A model generated the notes under the pieces. That model did not search any database. It saw only the letters and a program-made list of their open reading frames with translations, and had not been told where the DNA came from. The position numbers and the translations under genes were made by a program. Source: Lachnospiraceae bacterium (GTDB lineage: Bacteria; Bacillota; Clostridia; Lachnospirales; Lachnospiraceae). From it: a DNA stretch of 35,089 nucleotides. Positions 1 to 28,586 of this stretch are shown here, one piece after another (the first letter of the stretch is position 1; each line of letters opens with the position of its first letter). The stretch covers positions 1-35,089 of the forward strand of contig JAQXVT010000013.1 in NCBI GenBank assembly GCA_029225065.1, read 5' to 3'.

Positions 1-93
1 AAATCAAAAGCTGAAAATCTGGAAAAAATAAAAAACAGAAACCCAGAATTAACGGCAAACCTTTCTGACTTTTCCAGTATGTCTTCACAGTAG
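1..93 (+). CDS. C-terminal end of a phage protein (partial)
   Basis: Frame 1 is open from the first base and stops at TAG 91-93, giving a 30-residue tail that is rich in Lys, Asn and Ser and ends ...SDFSSMSSQ. The start lies outside the window. The next gene's ribosome-binding site (GGGAGG) follows the stop at once, so this is probably the upstream gene of the same late (tail/lysis) operon. No domain can be recognised in so short a piece; function unknown. It is called coding because the frame is open to the edge and the stop is placed just before a good Shine-Dalgarno. Confidence 0.55.
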   Translation, partial: KSKAENLEKIKNRNPELTANLSDFSSMSSQ

Positions 94-108
94 GGAGGTA
101 CATTCTGT

Positions 109-1650
109 ATGACAGATAGTTTGGAAAAGGCAGCGGCTGAAAAAGCCGCTGTTATTATTTATGGCAATGAGGGAAATTATGGTTCAGTAAACGCAAACGA
201 CAATGGAGCCGTGAGCGTGGGGAAAGTTCAGTGGCACGGTTCCCGGGCGCTGGATTTGTTAAAGACGATCATTAAGACACTGGGACAACAGGCAGCAACA
301 GTTATTCTGGGCGCAGATTTCTATAATGAGATCAAAACCGCCGTGCAATGGAACGGCAGAACTGTGACGGCAACGGAGAAAAGCAAATTAACTGCACTGC
401 TTACCACGCCTGCAGGAAAAGCGGCGCAGGATGCACTAGCTGAAAAAGATGTTCTTTCGTATGTCGAACACGGGGCAAGTATGGGAATTGAAGATGCGCA
501 GGCACTTGTATATTTTGCCGATCTGGAAAATCAAGGCGGTTCTGGTGCGTCTGCCAGAGTGACAAAGGCCGCAGCAGCACAGGCAGGAACAATGGCAAAA
601 GTAAATCTTTCTGCGCTGCACAAAGCAGCACTGGCAGATCGGGTAATGGGTAAATATGCAGCAAGAAGAAAAGAGACATACAGCAAAGCTGCAGCACTCA
701 CATTTTCTTCCGGGAACAGCAACGCAAATAAAACACAGACAGGAGGTAAAGGAACAATGGCAACAATGATTTCAAACAGCGGACATGATGAAAACGGTAA
801 ATATTCCGGTGGGCAGGCCGGGGACAACAACGGCACAGAATGGGCAGTTATTCCGTGGTACAACAGGCCGTGGAACTGCGTATTGCGCCACCCGGACCCT
901 GCAACTAGAAAACTGATTGCAGAACTGGCAGTAGAAGCAGCAAACAATAATCATATCGGGTACGATCAGTACCAGAGGGAAACTTTCTGGGCACAGCTTC
1001 AGAAAGTAGGTTATCATCCGTCAAAGATCACTGTGAACTGCGAAGCAGACTGCAGCGCAGGCGTGTGCGCAATCGTAAAGGCTGTTGGACATTTAATAGG
1101 AAACAGCAAACTGCAGAACCATACCGGAACATATACGGGCAATATGAAACAGGGACTGAAAGCGGCTGGCTTTGAAGTCCTTACAGAAAGCAAATATCTG
1201 ACAAGCGGCGATTATCTGCTTGCAGGTGATATTCTGCTGAATGAAAGCGCACATACTGCAACAGCGGTTACAGATGGAGCAAAGGCAAACAGCAGCACAT
1301 CTGGCAGCACATCCGGCAACACATCCGGTAGCAACGCCAGCGGTGAACAGACATACACTGTAAAAGCGGGTGATACCCTTTCAAAGATCGCTGCTGCCTA
1401 CGGCACTACATATCAGAAGCTTGCAAGCTACAACGGGATTGCGAACCCGAATATTATCAATGTGGGGCAGATCATTAAAATTCCGGCATCCGGCATCACG
1501 ACATATACCGTAAAAGCAGGTGACAGTCTGTGGGCTATCGCAGACAAAAAACTGAATGACGGCACACGTTACAATGAGATCAAGCAGTTAAACGGTCTGA
1601 AAAATGATACGATCTATGCAGGACAGGTGCTGAAAATTCCGGCAAAATAA
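109..1650 (+). CDS. Phage endolysin: lysozyme-like + NlpC/P60-like + two LysM
   Basis: A 513-residue lysin that should cut host peptidoglycan at the end of the lytic cycle. Start ATG 109 has GGGAGG about 9 bases upstream. Residues ~10-200 form an N-terminal domain with Glu21, Asp31 and Ser36 spaced roughly like the Glu-Asp-Thr triad of phage lysozymes (EGNYG, then [13 protein letters not shown]); glycosidase activity is inferred. Residues ~240-395 look like an NlpC/P60-type Cys peptidase: Cys315 in DCSAGVC and His382 in [11 protein letters not shown] Ser/Gly/Thr linker (~395-413) precedes two LysM domains (415-460 and 465-512, each opening TYTVKAGD) that bind glycan chains. No signal peptide, which fits export by the holin encoded 15 bases downstream. 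Confidence 0.85.
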
Positions 1651-1665
1651 AGGGAGGAAAAGGAA

Positions 1666-2229
1666 ATGGATAAAATCATATTTATTGCGGTAGAACTGGG
1701 AATTGCTGTGGCTTTCTTCTGTATGGGGAAATTTGTTTTCCCCAACATTCCGAAGACAGCTTTTGAAAAGCTTACAACATTATCTGACTGGGCAGCAAAG
1801 TTCGTGGTATGGGCCAGAGAGTTCTTGAAGACAAGCACCGGGCCAGAGAAAATGGAAATGGTAGTAGAAAAGCTGAAAGCCATTGCAGATCGCGCGGGCA
1901 TCGACATTACAAAAGAAGAATTACAGGCAATCGCACAGACGGCGTATGAAGCCATGAAAGCAGGCGAAAAAGAAGCTGCAGCCACAGCGCAGCCGCTGGA
2001 AGCAGTAACGGCAGCGGCGCCAACGGTAAACATTTACACGGGCGGTCAGAAGCCCGCAGAGGGCACTACAGCGATTGCAACTGATAATGTACCGGATGGG
2101 GCACTTGAACCGAATGAAGATGGCACAGTAAATGTCTATAATGCTGCCGGGGAAAAGGTGGGGATAGCCACACCGGAAGAGGTAGAAGCAGCAGAAAAGA
2201 ATGTCACAAGAATTGCCGTAGAAGAATAA
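1666..2229 (+). CDS. Holin-like phage protein (LLH type)
   Basis: A 187-residue protein with one N-terminal membrane segment (about residues 4-25), then a charged helical region (~45-90) of the kind seen in the phage_holin_LLH / superfamily 6 holins. The rest (~95-187) is an Ala/Glu-rich, low-complexity tail. The family call rests on architecture, size and position directly behind the endolysin with its own site (AGGGAGG); I see no catalytic motif. Its role would be to open the membrane or time lysis so that the signal-less endolysin reaches the wall. The tail is longer than in typical holins and could be a phage-specific extension. A strong hairpin follows the stop. Confidence 0.7.
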   Translation: MDKIIFIAVELGIAVAFFCMGKFVFPNIPKTAFEKLTTLSDWAAKFVVWAREFLKTSTGPEKMEMVVEKLKAIADRAGIDITKEELQAIAQTAYEAMKAGEKEAAATAQPLEAVTAAAPTVNIYTGGQKPAEGTTAIATDNVPDGALEPNEDGTVNVYNAAGEKVGIATPEEVEAAEKNVTRIAVEE

Positions 2230-2235
2230 AAAACA

Positions 2236-2275
2236 GAAAGCCCGCAGGCATTACGCTTGCGGGCTGTATTTATTT
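2236..2275 (+). terminator. Intrinsic terminator after the lysis genes
   Basis: A GC-rich inverted repeat (AGCCCGCAGG ... CTTGCGGGCT, short loop) directly follows the holin stop and is followed by a T-rich run (GTATTTATTT). It should end the phage late transcript. The facing gene on the minus strand ends at 2278, so it may act in both directions. Confidence 0.8.
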
Positions 2276-2277
2276 GA

Positions 2278-2571
2278 TTAAACTGCAAGTGCAAGTTTCA
2301 TCAAGTCTTCATGATAAAGAATTTTGTATGCGCCATTCTCAAAATACATGATACTTATTTCGCGTTTGAGCGGATTGCTAAAGTTGAAAAATTCAATTTC
2401 AATTTTATTTTCACCGCCAGCATCAAAGACAAGTGAATTATCATCGGTTTCATATACGCTTTCAAAATCATATGTATTCAAGAAATGTGCAAGGCAATCA
2501 TGACCGATAGAAGAACATCCGAAAGATTTCATAAGGTTGCAAATATCAAAAAGTGTAAATGTATTTTTCAT
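2278..2571 (-). CDS. Hypothetical small phage accessory protein (97 aa)
   Basis: A 97-residue, acidic and aromatic-rich cytosolic protein, oriented against the lysis operon. Start ATG 2571 has a GGGGG-containing site about 9 bases upstream. It has no membrane segment, signal peptide or motif I recognise; a central stretch (VFDAGGENKIEIEFFNF) looks like beta strands. Its opposite strand, low GC and place between the lysis genes and the phage end suit a 'moron' gene expressed from the prophage. It lies downstream of the 47-residue gene at 2683-2826 and may share its promoter, although two hairpins lie between them. Confidence 0.6.
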   Translation of the reverse strand: MKNTFTLFDICNLMKSFGCSSIGHDCLAHFLNTYDFESVYETDDNSLVFDAGGENKIEIEFFNFSNPLKREISIMYFENGAYKILYHEDLMKLALAV

Positions 2572-2617
2572 GGTTTATACCCCCATATAGAATTTTTTGA
2601 TTATTGGATTTTCACCC

Positions 2618-2676
2618 CGCCAGTATTTAGCCGCTGGCGGTCACTGTTGCTGAACTGTATGCCCCGGCAACCGGGC
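2618..2676 (-). other. Two hairpins between two small minus-strand genes
   Basis: Two inverted repeats lie between the stop of the 47-aa gene and the start of the 97-aa gene: CCGCCAG/CTGGCGG (about 2618-2640) and GCCCGG/CCGGGGC (about 2660-2676). Neither has a clear T-run on the minus strand. They could slow or partly stop transcription, or stabilise the upstream message. Confidence 0.45.
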
Positions 2677-2682
2677 TATATA

Positions 2683-2826
2683 TTATTTAAAACTATTTAC
2701 AATAGGTTTAATAATTCCACATTCCAGAAAGGCTTTTGCCATAGCTTCTGCAACTGTTTTATCAATTCCCTGTGCGATCAGATCATTTTTATATGCTTTC
2801 TTTGCTTCTTTCTCTGCTTTTGTCAT
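2683..2826 (-). CDS. Small phage accessory protein, 47 aa
   Basis: An ORF of 47 codons (ATG 2826 to TAA 2683). It encodes a Lys/Ala-rich, mostly helical peptide beginning MTKAEKEAKKAYKND and ending IIKPIVNSFK. It is accepted as real because it has a good Shine-Dalgarno (AAGGGG) about 8 bases before the start and a near-consensus sigma-A promoter on the same strand (-35 TTGATT at 2885-2890, 17-base spacer, -10 TATAAT at 2862-2867). No function can be assigned. It is divergent from the ribbon-helix-helix gene and shares its operators, so it may belong to the same phage regulatory switch. Confidence 0.6.
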   Translation of the reverse strand: MTKAEKEAKKAYKNDLIAQGIDKTVAEAMAKAFLECGIIKPIVNSFK

Positions 2827-2861
2827 TTTAGGTTTTTCCCCTTTCGTTATCTTATGATTGT

Positions 2862-2890
2862 ATTATATACTTACGGAAGTATAAAATCAA
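2862..2890 (-). promoter_or_regulatory. Sigma-A promoter for the minus-strand small genes
   Basis: Read on the minus strand: -35 TTGATT (2885-2890), 17-base spacer, -10 TATAAT (2862-2867). The spacer is almost filled by one operator copy, so a bound repressor would block polymerase. Confidence 0.7.
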
Positions 2891-2947
2891 TAGTCATAAT
2901 ACCCAAAGTTACGGAAGTATATTTGTGTATTTTATATACTTCCGTAA
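2866..2947. repeat. Three 13-bp operators in a divergent promoter region
   Basis: TTACGGAAGTATA occurs at 2871-2883 and 2909-2921, and inverted at 2935-2947. Copies 2 and 3 form a perfect 14-bp inverted repeat (2909-2922 / 2934-2947) with an 11-base gap. Copy 1 extends to a palindrome TATACTT-ACGG-AAGTATA (2866-2883). Copy 1 covers the minus-strand promoter spacer; copy 3 covers the expected -35 of the plus-strand promoter (-10 TATAAT at 2963-2968). The adjacent ribbon-helix-helix protein is the obvious candidate ligand (inference). Confidence 0.85.
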
Positions 2948-2962
2948 TAAAAGAAACGGTGA

Positions 2963-2968
2963 TATAAT
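2963..2968 (+). promoter_or_regulatory. -10 box of the ribbon-helix-helix gene
   Basis: TATAAT sits 30 bases before the ATG at 2999. The matching -35 position (2940-2945) is poor and lies inside the third operator copy, as expected for an autoregulated promoter. Confidence 0.6.
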
Positions 2969-2998
2969 ATCAATAAATAGAAATGGAGGTCATACCAG

Positions 2999-3250
2999 AT
3001 GGAACAATCAGAAGAGAAGAAAGCGTGGGATATACCCAGAGGACCGGCAGCCAACAAAGCAAAGCAAAAATATAAAAACGCAAATTATGATCGTGGGGAA
3101 CTGGCGCTGCCGAAAGGTATGAAAAAAGCAGTGCAGGAAGCAGCGAAAACACAGGGGCAATCTTTCAATGCATATGTGGAGCAGGCGATAAAAGAAAGAT
3201 ATAAGAGAGAGACAGGAAAGGAGTTAGAATGGAAGAAGACGGATGCTTAA
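2999..3250 (+). CDS. Ribbon-helix-helix (Arc/CopG-like) DNA-binding protein
   Basis: An 83-residue basic protein. Residues ~33-70 fit a ribbon-helix-helix fold: a short strand (GELALPKG), helix A (KKAVQEAAKTQG), the turn QSFN and helix B (AYVEQAIKERYKRETG). The N-terminal 30 residues are polar and probably flexible. Dimers of such proteins insert the strand into the major groove. GGAGG lies 9 bases before the ATG. It is encoded next to three repeats of TTACGGAAGTATA covering its own and the divergent promoter, so autorepression and control of the divergent genes is the likely job. It could alternatively be an antitoxin for the overlapping downstream gene. Confidence 0.75.
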   Translation: MEQSEEKKAWDIPRGPAANKAKQKYKNANYDRGELALPKGMKKAVQEAAKTQGQSFNAYVEQAIKERYKRETGKELEWKKTDA

Positions 3251-3615
3251 AAGGCAGGCAGATGACACGCAAGAAAATGTGCAGGATTTTAAGGTGGGCC
3301 AGAAACCGGAAACTGCCATTGAAGATAAAAAAAGAATATAATGACAGCATGGGATATAGCCGCTTGCGAGAGTATTATGGAATTATAAAAGATTTTACAA
3401 TAACAGAATATGAGGGAAATTTTAAACTGAAAATTTTATTTACAAGCGGGGAAACTGCGGAAGAGTATTTGACAAGCTGGTATGAGTTCATGGGAAAATA
3501 TAATCCAGAAAGGCTTGTTTTATATTATACTGCAAGTGGTCCAATATGTTATTTTTCAATGAGACAGCTTACCAGAGAGGAACAAAAGGAAAGGTTAGGG
3601 CAGGTAACACAGTAA
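3229..3615 (+). CDS. Hypothetical phage protein coupled to the RHH gene (128 aa)
   Basis: A 128-residue basic protein whose ATG lies inside the 3' end of the ribbon-helix-helix gene (22-base overlap), with its own site (AAAGGAG), so the two are translationally coupled. The N-terminal ~35 residues are very Lys/Arg-rich; the middle (YYGIIKDFTITEYEGNFKLKILFTSG) reads as beta strands and the C-terminus is helical and charged. I recognise no family. The overlap with a small DNA-binding protein recalls toxin-antitoxin or regulator-effector pairs, but nothing in the sequence proves it. It is the last gene before the element's right end; a strong terminator follows. Confidence 0.6.
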   Translation: MEEDGCLKGRQMTRKKMCRILRWARNRKLPLKIKKEYNDSMGYSRLREYYGIIKDFTITEYEGNFKLKILFTSGETAEEYLTSWYEFMGKYNPERLVLYYTASGPICYFSMRQLTREEQKERLGQVTQ

Positions 3616-3637
3616 CGGAAAGGTATATTGAAAAGAG

Positions 3638-3669
3638 ATACCCGGCAGCAGGTCTGCCGGGTATTGTTG
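3638..3669 (+). terminator. Intrinsic terminator at the prophage right end
   Basis: A perfect 11-bp stem (ATACCCGGCAG 3638-3648 / CTGCCGGGTAT 3654-3664) with a 5-base loop, then TGTTGT. It separates phage transcription from the host transporter genes and lies about 20 bases before the junction. Confidence 0.85.
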
Positions 3670-3700
3670 TACTAATGTTACATAGCCAACCGGCGCGCTC
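3665..3700. other. Probable phage-host junction (attR region)
   Basis: From 3686 rightwards the frame reads PTGALDSRATDELL, the conserved segment after the Walker B motif of ABC ATPases, where a Glu should precede Pro. The codon just before is TAG (3683-3685), and all sequence to the left is phage-like. The homology break therefore falls at about 3683-3690. The exact core cannot be fixed without the left end. Confidence 0.7.
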
Positions 3701-3937
3701 GATTCACGGGCAACCGATGAACTGCTGAGGCTCTTTTCTTCGGTGAACGACGATGGGCAGACGATCGTGATGGTGACACATTCCGTGAAGGCAGCCAGCC
3801 ATGCGAACCGGGTGCTCTTCATCCGTGACGGAGAGGTATTTCATCAGATTTACCGCGGCACCAGCACAAATGAGCAGCTGTATCAGAAGGTGGCAGACAC
3901 TTTGACAATGCTCGTGACAGGCGGTGATCGGGCATGA
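3686..3937 (+). pseudogene. 3' fragment of an ABC-transporter ATPase (BceA-like), cut by the prophage
   Basis: The last 84 codons of an ABC ATPase: P-T-G-A-L-D-S (the end of Walker B and the D-loop), then DGQTIVMVTHSVKAAS (switch His region) and the C-terminal helices. The Walker A, Q-loop, LSGGQ signature and the catalytic Glu are missing; they would lie beyond the left end of the element, outside this window. An in-frame GTG at 3743 could start only a fragment without any nucleotide-binding motif. The stop overlaps the permease start (ATGA at 3934-3937), the usual arrangement for BceAB-type pairs. Truncation is by insertion, not decay: the remaining codons show no frameshift. Confidence 0.85.
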
Positions 3938-5970
3938 AAAAGAATATTTATCCCAAACTTGCAATTACAGGTATGATTAAAAACAGCAGAACATACGTAC
4001 CGTATCTCATGACCTGCATCTGTATGGTTTTTGTCAATTACCTGTTTCGGTTTCTGCAGATGAACAAAAGAGTTACCAGGCTTCGCGGCGGTGCTACGCT
4101 GCAGAGCATGCTTTTGTTTGGAAGCGAGATCTTCTGTATTTTTGCACTGATCTTTCTGTTTTATACAAACTCGTTTCTGATCCGGCGCAGAAAGCGCGAA
4201 TTTGGCCTTTATAATATCCTTGGAATGGGAAAATGGAACATTGTGCGAATTCTGATCTGGGAGAGTATTTTTATGCTGCTGATTTCTCTTGGCGGAGGGC
4301 TTGGACTTGGAATTCTGTTTTCAAAGCTTGGAGAACTGTGCATTGTAAAAGTGCTTGGCGGAACGATCAGCTATGCATTTTCGGTGGAAGGAGCGGCGGT
4401 CAGCTCTACTGTTACCCTGTTTGTGATCATTTTTGCAGTGATTTTACTGAATTCACTGCGTCAGATCCGCATGGCGAATCCGATTGAACTGCTGCACGGC
4501 GGTGTGCAGGGAGAAAAACCGCCGAAAGGAAACTGGTTTGTCGCGCTTGCCGGACTTGTCATGCTTGGCATTGCCTACTATCTTGCAGTCACGATTCAGA
4601 ATCCGGTGAAGGCGCTGGAAACTTTTTTTCTCGCAGTATTGCTGGTAATTATCGCGACCTACCTGCTGTTTATTGCGGGCTCGGTTGTATTCTGCCGGAT
4701 CCTGAAGAAGAACAGACACTATTATTATCAGGCGAAACATTTTGTGTCCGTTTCCGCGATGATGTACCGGATGAAGCGCAACGGTGCCGGTCTGGCATCG
4801 ATCTGTGTGCTTTCCACGATGGTATTGGTCATGGTGTCGGCGACGATCTGTCTTTACAGCGGAAAAGAGCAGGCGCTGAGAAGACAGTATCCGCGTGATA
4901 TCCAGGTGACAGTGCGCAGTCTGGATGAGACGTATTTAAATGAGATCCACGGTGCGGTCAGCCAGGCAGAAAAGGAAAGCGGAATTACCGAAAAAAACAG
5001 AAGCCAGTATCACTGCCTGACTTTTGGCGGAATAATTGATGAAGATCAGGTAACTTTGAGCATCGATAATATTGTCGCAGCATCCGGCATGGTCGATTAT
5101 GGAAAAATCACGGAGCTTGTCTTTGTGCCGCTGGAGGATTACAATGCCCTGACCGGAAAAGAGGAGACATTAAAAAGCGGCGAAGTCCTGTTGTGCTGTA
5201 CAAGAGAGGGCAAATACAATTATGATACGATTTCCATTGAAGGAATGGAGAAGCTGCAGATAAAGGCACAGGTGCCGGAATTTGTCTCAAACGGCGAGGT
5301 ATCCGCAGTCATAATGTCGGCGATTTACATCGTTGTGCCAGACCTCGGTACACTTGAAAAGGCAGACGCAGCGCAGAAACAAGCCTACGGAGAAAATGCC
5401 TCTGAGCCGTATGAATACTACGGACTTGATCTGGATGGAGGGGACGATCAGCAGCTGGCTGTAACGGACCGTATTCTGGAAAAACTTGGAGGAGTGGCAG
5501 AGCAGAATCCGGAATCAGGCACGTATTCCGTTTCCTGTATTGCAAATGAGCGGGCCTATTTCTATGGAATGTATGGCGGAATTTTTGTGCTCGGCATCAT
5601 TCTTGGAAGCGTATTTATTGTCGCAGCGGTTCTGATCATGTATTATAAACAGGTTACGGAAGGATACGAGGACTGTGGGCGGTTCGAGGTCATGCAGAAG
5701 GTCGGTATGACGAAAAAAGAGATCAGAATAAGCATCAATTCGCAGATGCTGACGGTATTTTTTGCCCCACTCCTGATGGCAGGACTGCATCTCGGATTTG
5801 CGTTCCCGTTCGTATACAGGCTGCTGATGCTCTTCGGACTTTACGACCGGCTTTTCCTTCTGGAAGTGACCGGTGCGTGTTATCTCGTGTTTGCACTGTT
5901 TTACGTTGTGGTGTACGGGATCACGTCGCGGGCGTATTATCGGATTGTGAGCGCGGGGGAGAACCGGTAG
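3934..5970 (+). CDS. BceB-type ABC transporter permease (FtsX-like)
   Basis: A 678-residue permease of the antimicrobial-peptide (bacitracin/BceB) class. About ten membrane segments are visible: one near 18-40, three at ~57-180 with the FtsX-like stretch RRRKREFGLYNILGMGKWNI, two at ~200-255, one at ~285-307, and three at ~547-675. Between segments 7 and 8 lies a ~240-residue extracellular domain (~308-546), the hallmark of BceB proteins that sense peptide or lipid-II complexes. It works with an ATPase partner, and the gene that should supply it, overlapping by 4 bases upstream, is only a fragment here. No BceRS two-component genes are in the window; they may lie left of the prophage. The coding sequence itself is intact. 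Confidence 0.9.
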   Translation: MKKNIYPKLAITGMIKNSRTYVPYLMTCICMVFVNYLFRFLQMNKRVTRLRGGATLQSMLLFGSEIFCIFALIFLFYTNSFLIRRRKREFGLYNILGMGKWNIVRILIWESIFMLLISLGGGLGLGILFSKLGELCIVKVLGGTISYAFSVEGAAVSSTVTLFVIIFAVILLNSLRQIRMANPIELLHGGVQGEKPPKGNWFVALAGLVMLGIAYYLAVTIQNPVKALETFFLAVLLVIIATYLLFIAGSVVFCRILKKNRHYYYQAKHFVSVSAMMYRMKRNGAGLASICVLSTMVLVMVSATICLYSGKEQALRRQYPRDIQVTVRSLDETYLNEIHGAVSQAEKESGITEKNRSQYHCLTFGGIIDEDQVTLSIDNIVAASGMVDYGKITELVFVPLEDYNALTGKEETLKSGEVLLCCTREGKYNYDTISIEGMEKLQIKAQVPEFVSNGEVSAVIMSAIYIVVPDLGTLEKADAAQKQAYGENASEPYEYYGLDLDGGDDQQLAVTDRILEKLGGVAEQNPESGTYSVSCIANERAYFYGMYGGIFVLGIILGSVFIVAAVLIMYYKQVTEGYEDCGRFEVMQKVGMTKKEIRISINSQMLTVFFAPLLMAGLHLGFAFPFVYRLLMLFGLYDRLFLLEVTGACYLVFALFYVVVYGITSRAYYRIVSAGENR

Positions 5971-6019: not shown

Positions 6020-6151
6020 GCAGCCGCAGGGCAGAGTTTCGCAGTCCACCTAGTCTTTCTGACAGTTGTTCGCCTGCGGCGGATTTCATCCACCTCGGTT
6101 CGGACAACTGTCGCAGACATGTGGACAGCTGAAGCTCTGCCCTGCGGCTGC
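6020..6151. repeat. Long nested hairpin, MITE-like or bidirectional terminator
   Basis: Three nested perfect arms: 17 bp (6020-6036 / 6135-6151, beginning GCAGCCGCAGGGCAGAG), 6 bp (6044-6049 / 6121-6126) and 9 bp (6061-6069 / 6104-6112). The whole 132-base block can fold into one long stem. It lies between two convergent genes. No T-run follows the outer stem, so a palindromic mobile repeat is as likely as a terminator. Confidence 0.7.
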
Positions 6152-6187: not shown

Positions 6188-6598
6188 TCAATTCAATTTT
6201 TTGAGAAGTTCGGTCGGTTCGATTGCAGAAATTGTGGAGGTTTCGAAATCGGCAGTATTGCGTGTAACAATGTAATTTGCTGATACGTGTTCGGCACAGC
6301 GATCCTGAAGACAGTCTTCGAAGTCTTTGAAATTTTTCATTCTAATAGCTGTCAGAACTTCTTCCTGTGATGCAGTTGCAATTTTCAGAATTTTGCATAA
6401 TTTTTCAAGCCAGTCTCTTCGAATTTCATCAGGAACCTTTCTTAAGATGTACCAGATATTTGGAAGCGAATGAAATGCAATATAACCATCCACTTCTTCT
6501 GAAGCACATTTTTCAATGATTTGTGCTGCTGGCTGATAGAATGGTTCTCGGGCAATGAGAAAATCAATGATAACATTTGTGTCAATCAAGATTACCAT
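6188..6598 (-). CDS. PIN-domain ribonuclease toxin (VapC-like)
   Basis: A 136-residue PIN-domain protein when started at ATG 6598 (MVILIDTNVIIDFL). This is preferred to the in-frame ATG at 6640, which would put 14 non-PIN residues in front. Conserved acidic residues are visible: the Asp in LIDTNVIIDF, a Glu/Asp pair around KNFKDFEDCLQD, and Asp in the C-terminal strand region VTRNTADF. These coordinate Mg2+ for RNA cleavage in the family. It overlaps the upstream gene by 17 bases, the usual type II toxin-antitoxin layout. RNA target and toxicity are inferred from family membership only. It could also be a stand-alone PIN nuclease. Confidence 0.8.
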   Translation of the reverse strand: MVILIDTNVIIDFLIAREPFYQPAAQIIEKCASEEVDGYIAFHSLPNIWYILRKVPDEIRRDWLEKLCKILKIATASQEEVLTAIRMKNFKDFEDCLQDRCAEHVSANYIVTRNTADFETSTISAIEPTELLKKLN

Positions 6599-6851
6599 AG
6601 CGTTCCTTTCTGGCTGCTTCCAGTTCGGCCTCTGGATCAAAATCTTCAGGAATATATTTTTGAATTTCTTTTCTTGAGGCGGCTAATTCTTTAAATGCCT
6701 GCATTTTTTCGCTTGGATTAGCAGGGCTGGCTGCTGGTTTCGTGTATGCTCTGGAAGGAATGAGCCTTTGAATGATTTCTATCAGAAAGCTCAGATTATC
6801 GTCAGACATATTTTGAATCAGTTGAACTGCCTGTTTTTGCAGCATTGTCAT
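6582..6851 (-). CDS. Antitoxin partner of the PIN toxin
   Basis: An 89-residue acidic protein started at ATG 6851, which has AGGAGG 10 bases before it; an ATG at 6926 would overlap the promoter. The N-terminal half is helical (MTMLQKQAVQLIQNMSDDNL, then LIEIIQRL), followed by a Pro/Ala linker and a charged helical tail (DFDPEAELEAARKERYGNLD) of the kind that wraps around a toxin. I do not see a named DNA-binding fold with confidence. The assignment rests on order (antitoxin first), overlap with the toxin, size, and a palindrome over the promoter that suits autoregulation. Confidence 0.65.
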   Translation of the reverse strand: MTMLQKQAVQLIQNMSDDNLSFLIEIIQRLIPSRAYTKPAASPANPSEKMQAFKELAASRKEIQKYIPEDFDPEAELEAARKERYGNLD

Positions 6852-6897
6852 TTTTATTTCGCCTCCTGTATGGGTGATGTGGTTTTCTATATAAGGT

Positions 6898-6948
6898 ATT
6901 ATAGCTGTTTTCTGTGCTTTTCTCAATCTGTATTTACAGATATTGAGA
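6898..6948 (-). promoter_or_regulatory. Promoter and palindromic operator of the toxin-antitoxin pair
   Basis: Minus strand: -35 TTGAGA (6921-6926), 17-base spacer, -10 TATAAT (6898-6903). An interrupted palindrome, TCTCAAT-CTGTA / TACAG-AT-ATTGAGA (6921-6948), starts at the -35. It is a likely site for repression by the antitoxin or the complex. Confidence 0.7.
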
Positions 6949-23274: not shown

Positions 23275-23303
23275 TTGACAAGCAGGAACGAAGTTGCTAG
23301 AAT
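23275..23303 (+). promoter_or_regulatory. Consensus promoter of the nucleoside-import operon
   Basis: TTGACA (23275-23280), 17 bases, TAGAAT (23298-23303). Transcription would start a few bases before the riboswitch aptamer. Confidence 0.85.
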
Positions 23304-23319
23304 TTAATTAAGTATTGTT

Positions 23320-23388
23320 ATCCGATATAAGTCTGTGAAGAGGGTTCAGACGTTTCTACCGCACGCCGTTCAGTTGCGACTATTGGGT
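23320..23388 (+). ncRNA. Purine riboswitch aptamer (guanine-type)
   Basis: P1 pairs 23320-23325 (AUCCGA) with 23383-23388 (UUGGGU). J1/2 is UAUAA; P2 is GUCUG (23331-23335) / CAGAC (23347-23351). J2/3 is GUUUCUACC (23352-23360), identical to the conserved purine-riboswitch junction; P3 is CGCA (23360-23363) / UGCG (23375-23378). J3/1 contains GACUAU. The base equivalent to position 74 is C (23380), which in this class selects guanine or hypoxanthine. The two loops are longer than usual but keep a GGG (L2) and a CC (L3) that could kiss. Confidence 0.88.
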
Positions 23389-23403
23389 GGATGTAAATCG
23401 TCT

Positions 23404-23439: not shown

Positions 23440-23538
23440 AGTTGGCAGAATCAGAAATAGATCTGGTTCGCAGCGTAGTGAAAAGGATTTTCCGGTATGG
23501 ATTTGTGTCGGTATCACATCAAGAAAGGGAGAAAAGAC

Positions 23539-24735
23539 ATGAAAAAGTGTACGAAACTGATCCTTGCAGCAACAACGATGGTTACACTGGGGGCATTTAG
23601 CGGCCTTGCAGCAAATGCAGAGGAGACTACAGTCAAAGCCGGATTTATTTTCCTGCATGACGAGAACTCTACTTATGACCTGAACTTCATCAACGCAGCA
23701 AAAGAGGCGTGCGAGAAGATGGGCATCGAGTATGTATTCAAGACCGGTATTCCAGAGGGCCAGGAGTGCTACGAGGCAGCATGTGAGCTTGCAGATGAAG
23801 GCTGCAATTTCGTATTTGCAGACAGTTTTGGCCATGAGGATTATATTATTGAGGCAGCAAGAGAGTTCCCGGATGTTCAGTTCTGCCACGCAACCGGTAC
23901 AAAGGCACACACCGAGGAGATGGACAACTTCCACAATGCATTTGCTTCCATCTATGAGGGACGTTACCTGGCAGGTGTTGCAGCAGGAATGAAGCTGAAC
24001 GAGATGATCGCTGACGGCACAATTACAGAAGACCAGGCAAAGATGGGCTACGTTGGAGCTTATACTTATGCAGAGGTTATTTCCGGTTACACTTCTTTCT
24101 TCCTTGGCGCACGTTCCGTATGCCCGAGCGTTACGATGGAAGTTACTTTCACAGGATCCTGGTATGATGAGACCGCTGAGAAAGAAGGCGCAAACAAACT
24201 GATCGAGGATGGCTGCGTACTGATCAGCCAGCATGCAGATTCCATGGGTGCCCCGACCGCATGCGAGACCGCAGGCGTTCCGGATGTTTCCTATAACGGA
24301 AGCACTGAGAGTGCATGCCCGAACACTTTCATCGTTTCTTCCAGAATTGACTGGGCTCCGTACTTTGAGTATGCAATGGGCTGTGTAGAAAGCGGCGACG
24401 AGATCGCAGCAGACTGGACCGGAGATCTTTCTACGGGATCTGTTGTACTGACCAGCCTTGGTACCGCAGCAGCTGAGGGCACACAGGAAGCAATCGATGA
24501 GGTTACCGCAAAGCTTGAGTCCGGTGAGATCCATGTATTTGATATTGATACCTTCACCGTAAACGGCGAGAAGCTTGAGAGCTACATGGCAGACGTTGAT
24601 ACCGATGCAGATTACGAGGGTGACCATGAGGCAGTATCTGACGGATACTTCCACGAGTCTGCAGAGGGTTATCGTTCCGCTCCGTACTTTGATGTACAGA
24701 TCGATGATATTTCACTTCTTGATACCGCATTCTAA
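23539..24735 (+). CDS. BMP-family nucleoside-binding protein of an ABC importer
   Basis: 398 residues from ATG 23539 (MKKCTKLILAATT), with AAAGGGAG 8-15 bases upstream. BMP (PnrA-like) proteins bind purine nucleosides outside the cell and hand them to the permease; B. subtilis NupN is a relative. Seen: a signal peptide, the fold opening TVKAGFIFLHDENSTYDLNFINAAKEAC, the Asn/Phe-rich nucleoside site start, and the FADSFGHEDYI segment. The signal ends LAANAEE and has an A-x-A signal-peptidase-I site but no lipobox Cys, which is unusual because most Gram-positive members are lipoproteins. The gene is controlled by the upstream purine riboswitch. Codons are strongly biased, suggesting high expression. 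Confidence 0.9.
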   Translation: MKKCTKLILAATTMVTLGAFSGLAANAEETTVKAGFIFLHDENSTYDLNFINAAKEACEKMGIEYVFKTGIPEGQECYEAACELADEGCNFVFADSFGHEDYIIEAAREFPDVQFCHATGTKAHTEEMDNFHNAFASIYEGRYLAGVAAGMKLNEMIADGTITEDQAKMGYVGAYTYAEVISGYTSFFLGARSVCPSVTMEVTFTGSWYDETAEKEGANKLIEDGCVLISQHADSMGAPTACETAGVPDVSYNGSTESACPNTFIVSSRIDWAPYFEYAMGCVESGDEIAADWTGDLSTGSVVLTSLGTAAAEGTQEAIDEVTAKLESGEIHVFDIDTFTVNGEKLESYMADVDTDADYEGDHEAVSDGYFHESAEGYRSAPYFDVQIDDISLLDTAF

Positions 24736-24773
24736 TCCGGTACAGGAATCCGCTTCAGTGTGAAGCACAATGA

Positions 24774-24808
24774 GCGGTGCAGCGAATTTCGCCGCACCGC
24801 ATTTTTAT
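24774..24808 (+). terminator. Attenuating terminator after the binding-protein gene
   Basis: GCGGTGC (24774-24780) / GCACCGC (24794-24800) with an inner GCGA/TCGC, then ATTTTTAT. The operon continues beyond it, so it probably lets only part of transcription through, favouring binding protein over transporter. Confidence 0.75.
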
Positions 24809-24835
24809 GTAAAAGGTAAACAGTTCAGGACACAA

Positions 24836-24893
24836 GAAAATGGAAAAGCAGATCACAGCAAATTTATTTGCTGTGGGCTGCATTTCCATTTTC
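24836..24893 (+). promoter_or_regulatory. Long stable hairpin in the intercistronic region
   Basis: Arms: GAAAATGGAAA-A-GCAG (24836-24851) with CTGC-A-TTTCCATTTTC (24878-24893), and inside CACAGCAAAT (24854-24863) with ATTTGCTGTG (24866-24875). About 25 base pairs in all. It sits 60-120 bases before the ATPase start; likely a stability or processing element for the two message halves. Confidence 0.7.
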
Positions 24894-24969
24894 GGAGCAA
24901 ACGTGTCTGCGGATTGGGGCCGGAACGTCCGGTACCAGCCAGAATGAAAGGCAGAAGGAGGAACAACTC

Positions 24970-26502
24970 GTGGAGGGCAAAACGGCTGCGGTGACACTGA
25001 AAAATATCACCAAAAAATTCGGCCCGGTCGTGGCAAACGACAAGGTATGTCTCGACATTTACAAAGGCGAGATCCTGGCGCTGCTGGGGGAAAACGGCAG
25101 CGGCAAGACGACACTGATGAATATGCTTTCCGGGATTTATTTTCCGGATGAGGGACAGATTTTTATAAATGGAAAAGAGACGGTGATTCGTTCTCCGAAA
25201 GATGCATTTGCGCAGGGAATCGGCATGGTGCACCAGCATTTCAAGCTGATTGATGTGCTTAGCGCGGCAGAAAATATCGTGCTCGGTATGCCAGGCAGAC
25301 TGAATCTGAAGCAGGCGACGGAAAAGATCCGCTCGATCTGCAGCAGGTACGGATTTGAGGTAGATCCGGAGCAGAAGATCTACAGCATGTCCGTTTCACA
25401 GAAACAGACCGTCGAGATCATCAAGGTGCTCTACCGCGGTGCGGACATCCTGATCCTCGATGAGCCGACGGCGGTACTGACCCCGCAGGAGACCGAAAAG
25501 CTGTTTGCGGTGCTTCGCAACATGCGTGACGACGGGAAATCGATCGTCATCATCACTCACAAAATGCATGAGGTGGAGAGCCTCTCTGACCGTGTGGCGG
25601 TACTGCGGCGCGGCTGTTTCGTCGGTGATATGATGACGAAGGATACGAACGCGCAGGAGATGACCGATATGATGGTTGGCCATAAGGTTACCTTAAACAT
25701 CACAAGACCGGAGCCGGTAAATCCGCAGCCGCGTCTGGAGGTAAAGGGTCTGACGGTGCGCAGTGAAGAAGGAATCGTGAAGTTAAAAGACGTATCCTTT
25801 ACGGCTCGCAGCGGCGAGATCCTTGGTATTGCCGGAATTTCCGGCTGCGGTCAGAAGGAGCTGCTGGAGGCGATCGCCGGACTGCAGCCGACGGAAAGCG
25901 GTTCGGTTGTCTATATTGAAGAGGACGGCACGCGGGAGGAGTTGCTTGGAAAAGATCCGCAGAAGATCATGGATCTTGGCGTTTCCCTTTCCTTTGTCCC
26001 GGAGGACCGCCTTGGTATGGGACTGGTCGGCGATATGGATCTGACGGACAACATGATGCTCCGTTCGTTCCGTCGGGGACATTCCATGTTTACGGACCGG
26101 AAGACACCGAAAAAGCTGGCGAAAACCGTTGTCAGTGAGCTCGAGGTATCGACACCGGGACTTTCGACGCCAGTGCGCAGACTTTCCGGCGGAAATGTGC
26201 AGAAGGTTCTGGTCGGAAGAGAGATCTCCTCTGATCCGACTGTTCTGATGACAGCGTACGCGGTGCGCGGACTCGACATCAACTCCTCCTATACGATCTA
26301 CAACCTGATCAACGCGCAGAAGGAAAAGGGTGTGGCAGTCATTTTCGTAGGTGAGGACCTGGACGTACTGCTGGAGCTTTCGGACCGGATTCTTGTGCTG
26401 TGCGGCGGCGAGGTCAGCGGAATCGTAGATGGAAGAACTGCGGATAAAAATACCGTCGGCATGATGATGACGCGTGTGGGAGGTACGAAGAATGAACAGT
26501 AA
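24970..26502 (+). CDS. Nucleoside ABC importer ATPase with two nucleotide-binding domains
   Basis: 510 residues from GTG 24970 (AAGGAGG at 24955-24961). An upstream in-frame start at 24868 would run through the intercistronic hairpin. It has two fused ABC domains as in NupO/sugar-type ATPases. NBD1: Walker A GENGSGKT (40-47), signature MSVSQKQTVEI, Walker B ILILDEPTAVL, switch His in IIITHKMHEVE. NBD2: degenerate Walker A GISGCGQKEL, signature LSGGN (405-409), Walker B region VLMTAYAVRGLD. In NBD2 the usual (Q)PTRGLD is AVRGLD, so catalysis probably rests on NBD1, as is common in this family. It energises purine-nucleoside uptake with the two permeases downstream, which overlap in reading. 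Confidence 0.93.
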   Translation: MEGKTAAVTLKNITKKFGPVVANDKVCLDIYKGEILALLGENGSGKTTLMNMLSGIYFPDEGQIFINGKETVIRSPKDAFAQGIGMVHQHFKLIDVLSAAENIVLGMPGRLNLKQATEKIRSICSRYGFEVDPEQKIYSMSVSQKQTVEIIKVLYRGADILILDEPTAVLTPQETEKLFAVLRNMRDDGKSIVIITHKMHEVESLSDRVAVLRRGCFVGDMMTKDTNAQEMTDMMVGHKVTLNITRPEPVNPQPRLEVKGLTVRSEEGIVKLKDVSFTARSGEILGIAGISGCGQKELLEAIAGLQPTESGSVVYIEEDGTREELLGKDPQKIMDLGVSLSFVPEDRLGMGLVGDMDLTDNMMLRSFRRGHSMFTDRKTPKKLAKTVVSELEVSTPGLSTPVRRLSGGNVQKVLVGREISSDPTVLMTAYAVRGLDINSSYTIYNLINAQKEKGVAVIFVGEDLDVLLELSDRILVLCGGEVSGIVDGRTADKNTVGMMMTRVGGTKNEQ

Positions 26503-27604
26503 AGCAAAAGATCCGCTTTTTAATATTGTAAAGAGAGACGTGCTTCCGTGGTATCAGACTCTTGGAATCCGTCTTCTGGCGATTGTGGCGGCGCTGATCG
26601 TCTGCGCAATTGTTACGACGATCACGACCGGAATCAATCCGCTTGAGGTATACAGTACGATCTTCCTCGGAGCATTTGGTACGGCGCGAAAGACCTGGAT
26701 TACCTTTCAGAATGTGGCAATTCTGCTGCTGATCTCCCTGGCGCTGACACCGGCATTCCGGATGCGGTTCTGGAACATCGGAGGTGAGGGACAGGTGCTG
26801 ATCGGCGGTCTGGCATCGGCGGCCTGCATGATCTGTCTGGCTGATAAGCTTCCAAACGTGGTGGTAATCATTCTGATGATTGCCGCAAGTATCGGAGCAG
26901 GTGCGCTGTGGGGCGCGATTCCGGCATTTTTCAAGGCAAAATGGAACACCAACGAGACACTGTCGACTCTGATGATGAACTATATTGCGACCCAGCTGGT
27001 AGCATTTTACACGATCGTGTGGGAGATGCCGAAGGGCTCCGGAAAGATCGGTATCATCAATCAGAAGACGAACATCGGCTGGCTGCCGGAAGTGTTCGGT
27101 TCCAAATATCTGCTGAGCATTATTGTGGCGGTGATTGTGACCGTCCTCATGTATATTTATTTTACGTACAGCAAGCAGGGCTATGAAATCTCTGTTGTCG
27201 GCGAGAGTGTACAGACGGCGCGCTACGTCGGCATCAAGGTAGAAAAGGTTATTATCCGTACAATGCTGATTTCCGGCGGTATCTGCGGTCTGGTCGGTCT
27301 GCTGTTAGTCGGCGGCATCAACCATACCGTGACGACCACAATCGCGAACGGACAGGGCTTTACCGCTGTTATGGTATCGTGGATGGCAAAATTCAATCCG
27401 TTTGCGATGATTTTCACAAGCTTCCTGATCATTTTCATGAATCGTGGAGCAAGTGAGATCTCCACGGCATTTGGTCTGAACCAGTCGTTTGGAGATATTC
27501 TGACCGGAATAATCCTGTTTTTCATCATCGGATGTGAGTTCTTCATTTCGTATCAGATTCACTTCCGGAAAAAATCGGAGAGGAGCGTGAAAGTCAATGA
27601 TTAA
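26492..27604 (+). CDS. Nucleoside ABC importer permease 1 (NupP-like)
   Basis: 370 residues from ATG 26492 (MNSKAKDPLFNIVKRDVLPW), with GGGAGG 11 bases upstream, overlapping the ATPase end by 11 bases. BPD_transp_2 (branched-chain/ribose-type) permease: about nine helices, for example LLAIVAALIVCAIVTTITTG, and the conserved FRMRFWNIGGEGQVLIGGLASA block that contacts the ATPase/substrate path. Also seen is the cytosolic loop GYEISVVGESVQTARYVGIKV, the EAA-like coupling element. It pairs with the next gene to make the channel. Substrate inferred from the BMP protein and riboswitch. Confidence 0.92.
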   Translation: MNSKAKDPLFNIVKRDVLPWYQTLGIRLLAIVAALIVCAIVTTITTGINPLEVYSTIFLGAFGTARKTWITFQNVAILLLISLALTPAFRMRFWNIGGEGQVLIGGLASAACMICLADKLPNVVVIILMIAASIGAGALWGAIPAFFKAKWNTNETLSTLMMNYIATQLVAFYTIVWEMPKGSGKIGIINQKTNIGWLPEVFGSKYLLSIIVAVIVTVLMYIYFTYSKQGYEISVVGESVQTARYVGIKVEKVIIRTMLISGGICGLVGLLLVGGINHTVTTTIANGQGFTAVMVSWMAKFNPFAMIFTSFLIIFMNRGASEISTAFGLNQSFGDILTGIILFFIIGCEFFISYQIHFRKKSERSVKVND

Positions 27605-28586
27605 TCTTGCGGCATTTATTCCAAGAGCAGTAGTGCAGGGCATTCCGCTTCTGTTCGGAAGTACGGGAGAAATCCTGACTGAGAAATCCGGAAACTTAAA
27701 CCTGGGAATCCCAGGCGTCATGTATGTCGGCGCAATCAGTGGTGTCATCGGTTCATTTTTCTATGAGCAGTCGACGGACAACATGAATGGTGTGCTCGCG
27801 ATTCTGATTCCGGTGCTCTGCTGTCTGGGCGCTTCCTTCCTGATGGGACTTCTGTACAGCTTCCTGACCGTAACGCTGCGTGCAAATCAGAACGTAACCG
27901 GTCTTGCAATGACAACGTTCGGTGTTGGTTTCGGAAACTTTTTCGGAGGTTCACTGATTAAGCTTTCCGGCAGCGACGTGCCGTCGATCGCACTTTCAGC
28001 GACGAGCAGCTATTTCAGTAAATCCCTGCCGTTTGCAGACAGTCTTGGCTGGTTTGGAAAGGTATTTCTTTCCTACGGCTTTTTGGCGTACGCGGCAATC
28101 GTAATCGCAATCATCTGTGCTTACGTGCTGAATCATACGCGTGTGGGACTTCATTTAAGAGCAGTCGGCGAGGATCCGGCAGCGGCAGATGCGGCTGGCA
28201 TTAACGTTACAAAGTATAAGTATCTTTCCACCTGCATCGGCTGTATGATCGCAGGACTCGGCGGACTTTACTACGTTATGGATTACGCCTGCGGCGTATG
28301 GTCCAACGATGCATTCGGTGACCGCGGCTGGCTGGCAATCGCGCTCGTTATCTTCACGATCTGGCGTCCGGTTGTGAGCATTTTCTCCTCGATCTTTTTC
28401 GGAGGACTGTACATTCTGTATCTCTACATCCCGACCGGAATGGATCACATGGAATTCCAGGAGCTTTACAAGATGATTCCGTACGTGGTTACGCTCGTCG
28501 TACTGGTGCTGACCAGCATGCGCAACAAGCGAGAGAATCAGCCGCCGAAATCACTGGGACAGTCGTATTTCCGTGAGGAGCGGTAA
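27597..28586 (+). CDS. Nucleoside ABC importer permease 2 (NupQ-like)
   Basis: 329 residues from ATG 27597, overlapping the previous gene by 8 bases, with GGAGAGG in front. Second BPD_transp_2 permease: STGEILTEKSGNLNLGIPGVMYVGA near the N-terminus is the family's signature, and the coupling loop is VGLHLRAVGEDPAAADAAGINV. About nine helices. It forms a heterodimer with permease 1; the set NBD-permease-permease with a BMP protein is complete. A terminator follows at 28672-28725. Confidence 0.92.
   Translation: MINLAAFIPRAVVQGIPLLFGSTGEILTEKSGNLNLGIPGVMYVGAISGVIGSFFYEQSTDNMNGVLAILIPVLCCLGASFLMGLLYSFLTVTLRANQNVTGLAMTTFGVGFGNFFGGSLIKLSGSDVPSIALSATSSYFSKSLPFADSLGWFGKVFLSYGFLAYAAIVIAIICAYVLNHTRVGLHLRAVGEDPAAADAAGINVTKYKYLSTCIGCMIAGLGGLYYVMDYACGVWSNDAFGDRGWLAIALVIFTIWRPVVSIFSSIFFGGLYILYLYIPTGMDHMEFQELYKMIPYVVTLVVLVLTSMRNKRENQPPKSLGQSYFREER

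What the first reader, a model, noticed from the sequence alone, without database searches (positions are those of the whole stretch)
3600..5970. Prophage inserted in the ATPase gene of a BceAB-type antimicrobial-peptide transporter: possible excision switch
Seen: phage lysis and accessory genes end at a terminator, and at ~3683 the sequence becomes, in frame, the post-Walker-B part of an ABC ATPase (PTGALDSRATDELL...). It overlaps by ATGA an intact BceB-type permease. The element thus splits the ATPase at a codon block that is almost invariant in ABC ATPases. The remaining 3' piece is undecayed, which suggests recent or reversible insertion. Known: reversible prophage excision that repairs a host gene ('active lysogeny', as with Listeria comK) exists. 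Inference: lysogens lack this bacitracin/peptide-resistance transporter, and excision restores it, so peptide stress and phage state could be linked.
Basis: partly seen in the sequence, partly recalled or inferred. Interest (0 to 1): 0.72.

Follow-up and report, generated by a model that had tools for sequence, protein, structure and literature searches.

The report
Prophage splitting a peptide-transporter ATPase gene
A virus has inserted itself into a gut bacterium's gene for a peptide-defence pump, using as its landing site the stretch of DNA that encodes a motif shared by many such pumps, and related viruses land at the same motif in other pump genes.

Summary
The window starts inside a prophage whose right end (to ~3690) splits a PsdA/BceA-type ATPase at its DEPTG codons. 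The missing left end lies on contig C85 of the same genome: a large serine integrase, the reciprocal attachment half-site, the 5' ATPase piece, then kinase and regulator genes. The half-site pattern has exactly two mismatch-free matches in the genome, at the two junctions. In 98 of 98 loci of other genomes that hold both ATPase pieces beside the permease (duplicates included), the pieces are contiguous.

The main new result concerns the integrase, not a switch. Of 19 related integrase loci (60% identity or more, flank readable), 11 are integrated; 8 of these 11 sit in the DEPTG block of an ABC ATPase, one of them another PsdA/BceA-type gene. The other eight carry an intact attP, so relatives do excise. 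This looks like a phage clade addressed to the codons of a protein motif. In a lysogen the transporter should be dead. That excision serves as a peptide-responsive switch is not shown, and the many targets argue against a dedicated link. The C. difficile phage phiCD27 is a likely precedent (recalled).

The parts
1..3690 (+). Right-end part of the prophage (contig C13 begins inside it; the rest of the phage is not on this contig)
   Evidence: Endolysin, holin and HicB-like genes; homologues of all three lie in attP-bearing contigs L102, L106 and L160. The ORFs at 2278-2571 and 3229-3615 had no match there at 1e-6
109..1650 (+). Phage endolysin (ELLD domain plus two LysM)
   Evidence: Pfam PF25309 E 3.2e-67, PF01476 E 1.4e-36; 66% identical over 326 aligned residues in L160
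1666..2229 (+). Holin, LLH type
   Evidence: Pfam PF09682 E 7.6e-12; 52-57% identity in L102, L106, L160, L163
2999..3250 (+). Small HicB-like phage protein (weak, just below the Pfam cut-off)
   Evidence: PF05534 19.7 bits against a cut-off of 21; 53-61% identity in L096, L102, L104, L106, L160, L163
3638..3664 (.). Stem-loop, terminator-like (called on the minus strand only); could limit transcription across the right end
   Evidence: 11-pair stem; 2 terminator-like hits in 2900-4100 against 1.0 +/- 1.2 in shuffles; fold -20.6 kcal/mol, z -5.06
3665..3688 (+). attP-derived arm of attR; imperfect inverted repeat of the arm at L086:3140-3163
   Evidence: The only two exact matches of the half-site pattern in the genome are here and on C85; reading
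3689..3690 (+). Predicted crossover dinucleotide AC, inside the Thr codon of DEPTG
   Evidence: Centre of symmetry of the two 24-nt arms; the corresponding GT is at the same place in 11 of 11 host junctions and 7 of 8 intact attPs of related integrases (not L162), read by eye. Inferred, not measured
3686..3937 (+). 3' piece of the PsdA/BceA-type ATPase (D-loop and H-switch side), stop overlapping bceB by ATGA
   Evidence: contiguous with the 5' part in 98 of 98 testable loci
3934..5970 (+). Intact PsdB/BceB-type permease, 678 aa
   Evidence: PF02687; PDB PsdB E 1.7e-41, BceB E 6.4e-27; the only match to it in its own genome at E <= 0.001

Best explanation
A temperate phage of a gut bacterium (probably Lachnospiraceae) has integrated by a large serine integrase into the PsdA/BceA-type ATPase gene of a BceRS-AB-like module. 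Its attB is the DNA that encodes the conserved Walker B/D-loop junction (DEPTG), and the crossover is probably at the AC of the Thr codon. Shown: both ends, reciprocal half-sites, complementary ATPase pieces, contiguous homologues in other genomes, and use of the same codon block in other ABC ATPase genes by related integrases. Inferred: the lysogen makes at most an ATPase fragment without D-loop and H-switch plus a short phage-encoded tail, and a permease without a partner, so the transporter is off; and precise excision would leave the gene uninterrupted, because serine integrase recombination is conservative. The disruption is then a by-product of an integrase addressed to a motif-coding sequence present several times in the genome, not a regulator evolved for this transporter.
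For: Other end found on C85 with integrase, half-site, 5' ATPase piece and kinase/regulator genes. Half-site exact only twice in the genome. Integrase has Resolvase, Recombinase and Zn-ribbon domains. The two 24-nt arms are near-perfect inverted repeats around AC. Right-end genes of the window and the first C85 gene both have homologues in the same attP-bearing contigs, e.g. L102 and L163, so the two contig ends belong to one phage type. ATPase pieces contiguous in 98 of 98 loci that hold both; 4 of 102 lack one or both (duplicates included). Of 19 related integrase loci at 60% identity or more with flank, 8 carry intact attP (L163 and L164 identical where shown) and 11 are integrated; 8 of 11 are at DEPTG of an ABC ATPase (Pfam confirms 7; the eighth, L099, has only ~20 host codons, read by eye). 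L166 is an insertion in another PsdA/BceA-type gene. G292 holds a whole prophage of ~38.3 kb with both ATPase halves.
Against: The prophage is split over contigs and its middle was not found (portal PF04860 and terminase PF03354: no match), so linkage of C13 and C85 is inferred. No same-species empty site was available; the best-scoring permease of another genome is 58% identical (G023). Three of 11 integrated relatives are not in ABC ATPases (phage minor tail protein, FeoB, Toprim protein). L098 and L161 come from one metagenome and near-identical genes, so the 8 may not all be independent. Loss of function is inferred, not measured.
Confidence: 0.88

Rival explanations
1. Active lysogeny: the prophage is a reversible genetic switch. 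It excises under peptide or other stress without killing the host, the ATPase gene is uninterrupted again, and resistance returns.
For: Both ATPase pieces are open, with no internal stop and no significant excess of changes. The integrase is intact, and relatives show excised attP. The genome has a single match to this permease, so no close paralogue would compensate.
Against: Related integrases use several different ABC genes and some unrelated genes, so no specific link to this transporter has been selected clade-wide. No excised form shows in the assembly. Open pieces are equally expected after a recent insertion. The 3' piece has more own-unique than sister-unique changes in 12 of 16 comparisons (4 ties), none significant (smallest p 0.11).
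Confidence: 0.12
2. A recently integrated or defective prophage, now fixed: plain insertional inactivation with no return. (This and the switch are alternatives within the best explanation, not against it.)
For: Portal and terminase families are not found in the assembly. Slight, non-significant tendency to extra changes in the 3' piece.
Against: Integrase, endolysin and holin are intact, and both half-sites are well kept. Missing phage genes are just as well explained by binning loss or by other protein families.
Confidence: 0.35
3. Assembly artefact: C13 and C85 ends come from different strains or from chimeric contigs.
For: Draft genome in 88 contigs; the prophage is cut by contig ends.
Against: Reciprocal half-sites, complementary gene pieces, each exact half-site once, and the same junction architecture in independent contigs including one of 444 kb.
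Confidence: 0.03

Closest known systems
Temperate phage phiCD27 of Clostridioides difficile and its serine integrase
   Same: Integrase 39.5% identical over 98%. Its attP beside the integrase has inverted arms around a centre that on the other strand reads CCAAGTGG, which could encode Pro-Ser-Gly (read by eye; the script mislabelled this phage record as a host junction). I recall that its attB was reported inside an ABC transporter ATPase gene (Williams et al. 2013; title seen only in the reference list of PMC4430133; the paper itself not held).
   Different: Different host, different phage, different core; its target gene was not verified here.
Multi-targeting large serine recombinases (Durrant et al. 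2022, PMC10083194; passages read)
   Same: One integrase group, several target genes; [quoted passage not shown]
   Different: The multi-targeting clade described there is TndX-like, 63% with DUF4368. Here the integrase has no DUF4368 match and the recurrent site is a codon block of a protein motif. 'ABC transporter' does not occur in that main text; its supplements were not seen.
Gene-splitting prophages with regulated excision (SP-beta in spsM, PMC4191935, start of abstract seen in listing; Listeria comK, recalled)
   Same: Prophage splits a host gene; excision would leave the gene uninterrupted.
   Different: No regulated excision shown here, and the target is not fixed across relatives.
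PsdRS-AB / BceRS-AB peptide sensing and detoxification modules
   Same: ATPase and permease match PsdA/BceA and PsdB/BceB best among solved structures; two-component genes adjacent.
   Different: ATPase split by a prophage; substrate unknown.

Membership tests
Large serine recombinase prophage | Integrase with Resolvase, Recombinase and zinc-ribbon domains at one end of the element | tested here: met
   PF00239 E 3.3e-31, PF07508 E 1.2e-9, PF13408 E 5e-10
Large serine recombinase prophage | attP of about 50 bp with inverted arms and short core; hybrid sites at both ends | tested here: met
   Two 24-nt arms around AC/GT at C13:3665-3690 and C85:3140-3165; intact attPs of similar form in 8 related loci
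Large serine recombinase prophage | Complete set of phage structural genes between the ends | tested here: inconclusive
   Endolysin and holin present; portal PF04860 and terminase PF03354 not found; middle not located in the assembly
BceAB/PsdAB-type transporter | Closest solved relatives are PsdA/BceA and PsdB/BceB | tested here: met
   5' ATPase piece: PsdA E 3.5e-50, BceA E 2.6e-48; permease: PsdB E 1.7e-41, BceB E 6.4e-27, the only two matches
BceAB/PsdAB-type transporter | Curated NCBIfam model at or above its cut-off | tested here: not met
   ATPase piece: 185 families match, none of the 25 shown reaches its cut-off (best LolD 182 of 308 bits; the piece is truncated); permease: no family. 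No Bce/Psd model appeared among those shown, so this says little either way
BceAB/PsdAB-type transporter | Adjacent two-component system | tested here: met
   Histidine kinase L086:4041-5045 and response regulator 5042-5722 next to the 5' ATPase piece; named from NCBIfam matches below their cut-offs; similar kinase and regulator upstream in many of the relatives
BceAB/PsdAB-type transporter | Confers resistance to bacitracin or lantibiotics | not testable with these tools
   No assay
Active lysogeny (phage regulatory switch) | Conditional excision that restores gene function without lysis | not testable with these tools
   No reads or cultures; only the integrated form shows in the assembly
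TndX-like multi-targeting recombinases | DUF4368 domain (in 63% of that clade per PMC10083194) | tested here: not met
   Only Resolvase, Zn_ribbon_recom and Recombinase match the integrase at E <= 0.001

The most novel reading that the evidence does not exclude
A phage clade has made the coding sequence of a conserved protein motif its chromosomal address: DEPTG of ABC ATPases (LolD/MacB/BceA-like in those tested) for the closer integrases, and Pro-x-Gly codons in other motifs (collagen-like repeats and others) for more distant ones. A host then offers several sites. Lysogeny switches off one envelope or peptide-defence transporter at a time, and excision would leave that gene uninterrupted again, so phage state and peptide tolerance are coupled in gut populations.
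Probability: 0.4. Interest if true: 0.72.

Novelty: new variant of a known kind. Interest (0 to 1): 0.55.

Why it matters
Integrases often aim at one tRNA gene or one other gene. An integrase aimed at the DNA of a protein motif shared within a transporter superfamily would explain how one phage clade can enter diverse hosts, makes the lysogen's transporter defect predictable from sequence, and offers a natural set of related integrases and att sites for studying how serine integrases read attB. It also gives a testable prediction: lysogens should lack particular envelope or peptide-defence transporters.

Tried and rejected
Rejected: chance or pseudogene reading (complementary pieces, reciprocal half-sites). 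Rejected: the four serine recombinases on C58 as the integrases of this phage; they lie together in what looks like another element, beside a relaxase-like ORF named by reading only. Rejected as proof of reversibility: the open 3' piece; the rate test is not significant either way. A first intactness criterion (ORF ending at the permease start) gave 78 of 102 intact, 18 not, 6 too short. It failed where the permease match begins late or lies on the other strand, so I replaced it by contiguity of the two separately aligned pieces: 98 of 98 loci with both pieces, while 4 of 102 lack one or both: L019 and L131 at contig edges, L139 a second part of the L127 gene cut by the locus edge, and L037 without an ATPase there. 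The 102 include duplicates between the two collections. The criterion tests only the DEPTG junction: L001, for one, has a frame break further upstream. Led nowhere: two DNA patterns with a wrong spacer gave no match and were rerun corrected; portal and terminase searches; ten paper searches. None of their listings, nor the passages opened, describes DEPTG-directed integration, but the word DEPTG itself was not searched, listings were capped, and the library holds only open-licence papers. The distant integrases G989 and G1086 (42%) end near repeat-rich genes (named by eye), but their att sites could not be delimited; G105 and G749 (34-37%) and the other loci under 60% are not in the 8 of 11.
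Full report
What is there. The window is contig C13:1-35089 of an 88-contig draft genome. From its first base to about 3690 it is the right end of a prophage: an endolysin with LysM repeats, an LLH holin, a HicB-like small protein and a 128-aa protein, then a stem-loop at 3638-3664. At 3686 the sequence passes in frame into PTGALDSRATDELL..., the part of an ABC ATPase after Walker B, with the D-loop and the H-switch (names of motifs recalled). The ATPase overlaps by ATGA an intact 678-aa permease.

The other end. A search of the same genome for serine recombinases gave five matches, four on C58 and one on C85. C85:1-8000 (L086) reads: phage-side ORFs, a 458-aa serine integrase (1763-3139), a half-site (3140-3163), then on the minus strand the first 173 codons of an ATPase that end LILADEPT, then a histidine kinase (4041-5045) and a response regulator (5042-5722). 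A pattern made from the half-site, allowing three mismatches, has seven matches in the genome, and its backward control also seven (3 + 4); but only two are exact: C13:3667-3687 and C85:3142-3162. The two arms, 24 nt each, are near-perfect inverted repeats around AC (GT on the other strand). This is the expected geometry of a serine-integrase attP, and it places the crossover in the Thr codon of DEPTG (inference).

One phage, two contigs. The contigs end inside the prophage, so the link is inferred. It is supported by relatives: attP-bearing phage contigs in IMG/VR carry, across the attP, homologues of the window's right-end genes and of C85's left-end genes. For instance L102 has endolysin 48%, holin 53%, HicB-like 61%, the C85 first gene 51% and the integrase 76%. 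Three of the eight ORFs tested, window 2278-2571 and 3229-3615 and C85 1348-1638, had no match in the loci searched. The middle of the phage was not found: no match for portal PF04860 or terminase PF03354.

The host gene. The 5' piece is closest among solved structures to PsdA and BceA (E 3.5e-50, 2.6e-48), and the permease to PsdB and BceB (E 1.7e-41, 6.4e-27). In NCBIfam the permease matches nothing, and none of the 25 models shown (of 185) for the ATPase piece reaches its cut-off, so the name rests on the solved-structure matches and on the neighbouring two-component genes. Of 47 genomes of the genus, own included, 29 have a match to the permease at any strength; the best-scoring one outside the own genome is 58% identical (G023), and the own genome has only one match. 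In 102 loci from other genomes (duplicates included), both ATPase pieces lie next to the permease in 98, and in all 98 they are contiguous at the DEPTG junction. None of these shows the split without a phage. The pieces in this genome show no internal stop. Relative-rate tests against two sisters and eight outgroups are not significant for either piece, though in the 3' piece own-unique changes outnumber sister-unique ones in 12 of 16 comparisons, with 4 ties (smallest p 0.11); of residues invariant in 12 relatives, 1 of 101 (5' piece) and 2 of 46 (3' piece) are changed here. That fits a recent insertion and also a reversible one.

What the integrase does elsewhere. IMG/VR scans gave 33 integrase loci of all identities. 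Genome searches, in most of which only four candidates per genome were scored, gave a few more: 2 of 397 genomes in the family at E <= 1e-100, 5 of 392 in the order at 1e-80, 2 of 48 in G616's family, both already known, 1 of 1 in G292's genus, itself, and 3 of 391 in the class at 1e-120; the own genome is counted. Of 22 relatives with at least 60% identity, 3 end at the integrase (L095, L097, L109) and 19 have readable flank. Eight of these 19 carry an intact attP (L096, L102, L104, L106, L160, L162, L163, L164; the last two are identical over the stretch shown). Eleven are integrated: eight in the DEPTG codons of an ABC ATPase (L098, L099, L100, L103, L105, L161, L166, and L157 from G292), three elsewhere (L155 a phage minor tail, tape-measure-like protein at LPTG; L156 FeoB at QHTG; L101 a Toprim-domain protein). 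The junction calls were read by eye from the script output. Pfam confirms ABC_tran in the seven ABC fragments long enough to test and names the other three. L098 and L161 come from one metagenome and hit near-identical genes, so they may not be independent. Among solved structures, L166 is closest to PsdA/BceA. For L105, L157 and L161 the top row is an unnamed ABC ATPase (5xu1), with LolD high in each list and BceA second for L157. L103 is a mixed case: Rv1281c and DppD chains and MJ0796 rank at the top, with PsdA, MacB and LolD a little lower. All 11 host junctions have GT at the core, and so do 7 of the 8 attPs, L162 being the exception. G292 has the whole prophage in a 444-kb contig, from about 40,194 to 78,459, with the 3' ATPase piece at one end and the 5' piece at the other. 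A second contig, IMGVR_3300010270_000007, bears both ends (L100 and L190). Four further contigs show the 3' end in PTG(A)L(D/N) ATPases (L188, L189, L191, L192), but the pattern that found them required this sequence, so they add variety, not a rate, and some may be the other ends of prophages already counted.

How rare is the site? The codon pattern for DEPTG occurs eight times in this genome, the occupied site included (backward control: none), against 125 ABC_tran matches, a lower bound because 150 of 195 candidates were scored. Four of the eight lie in listed ABC domains; the other four were not identified. So the address selects a small subset of ABC ATPases.

More distant relatives. At 55-60% identity, L107 and L165 join host genes at LPDG and LPEG, and L108 has an attP. 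At 43-45%, L167 and L169 are in collagen-like Gly-x-y repeats. phiCD27 (39.5%) has an attP centre that fits Pro-Ser-Gly codons. These hint that Pro-x-Gly codons, rich in CC and GG, are the wider preference; this is exploratory and read by eye, L165 and L162 do not keep the GT core, and since attL carries phage sequence beyond the core, the Gly codon there is not host evidence.

Mechanism and meaning. The lysogen's ATPase piece keeps Walker A, Q-loop, signature and Walker B but loses D-loop and H-switch, and runs into a short phage-encoded tail. In frame with the 3' piece there is a stop just upstream, and its first start codon is at 3743. The stem-loop could limit transcription across the right end, though the scan calls it only on the minus strand. 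The transporter is therefore very likely inactive (inference). In BceRS-AB systems the transporter is needed for signalling (recalled), so the operon should also stay uninduced. Excision by a serine integrase with its directionality factor would be precise (established knowledge), and relatives do excise (intact attP). But several targets, including genes unrelated to peptides, argue that the choice of this gene is incidental. I therefore keep the active-lysogeny reading as a minor rival.

Literature. Ten full-text searches listed nothing that describes DEPTG-directed integration; the word DEPTG was not itself searched. Passages of PMC10083194, PMC4430133, PMC11222575 and PMC8637289 were read; the other listed papers were seen only as titles and abstract starts. 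The phiCD27 att-site paper is not held; that its target is an ABC ATPase gene is my recollection.

Noticed in passing
G000:C58 (L087:4656-11137): Four large serine recombinase genes in a row on one strand, near a relaxase-like ORF (by reading): probably an unrelated mobilisable element with an unusual recombinase cluster.
   Followed up: no
window 6041-6140; L086 3852, 6516, 7478: A dispersed imperfect palindrome of about 100 bp (GCAGTCCACCTAGTCTTTCTG...CAGACATGTGGACAGCTG) in or near intergenic DNA, one copy between the kinase and ATPase genes and one downstream of the permease; no Rfam match there.
   Followed up: partly
window 6188-6926 (minus strand): PIN-like toxin and antitoxin-like gene pair directly downstream of the permease (by reading the ORFs; not tested).
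   Followed up: no
window 23303-23402: Purine riboswitch aptamer (Rfam RF00167, 50.2 bits) upstream of what reads as a substrate-binding protein and an ABC importer (23497-28586), probably nucleoside uptake.
   Followed up: partly
L167, L169: Integrases 43-45% identical to this one are integrated in collagen-like Gly-x-y repeat sequences.
   Followed up: partly
L155 (G616:C26): A relative's attL lies in a phage minor-tail (tape-measure-like) gene: apparently a prophage inserted in other phage DNA.
   Followed up: no
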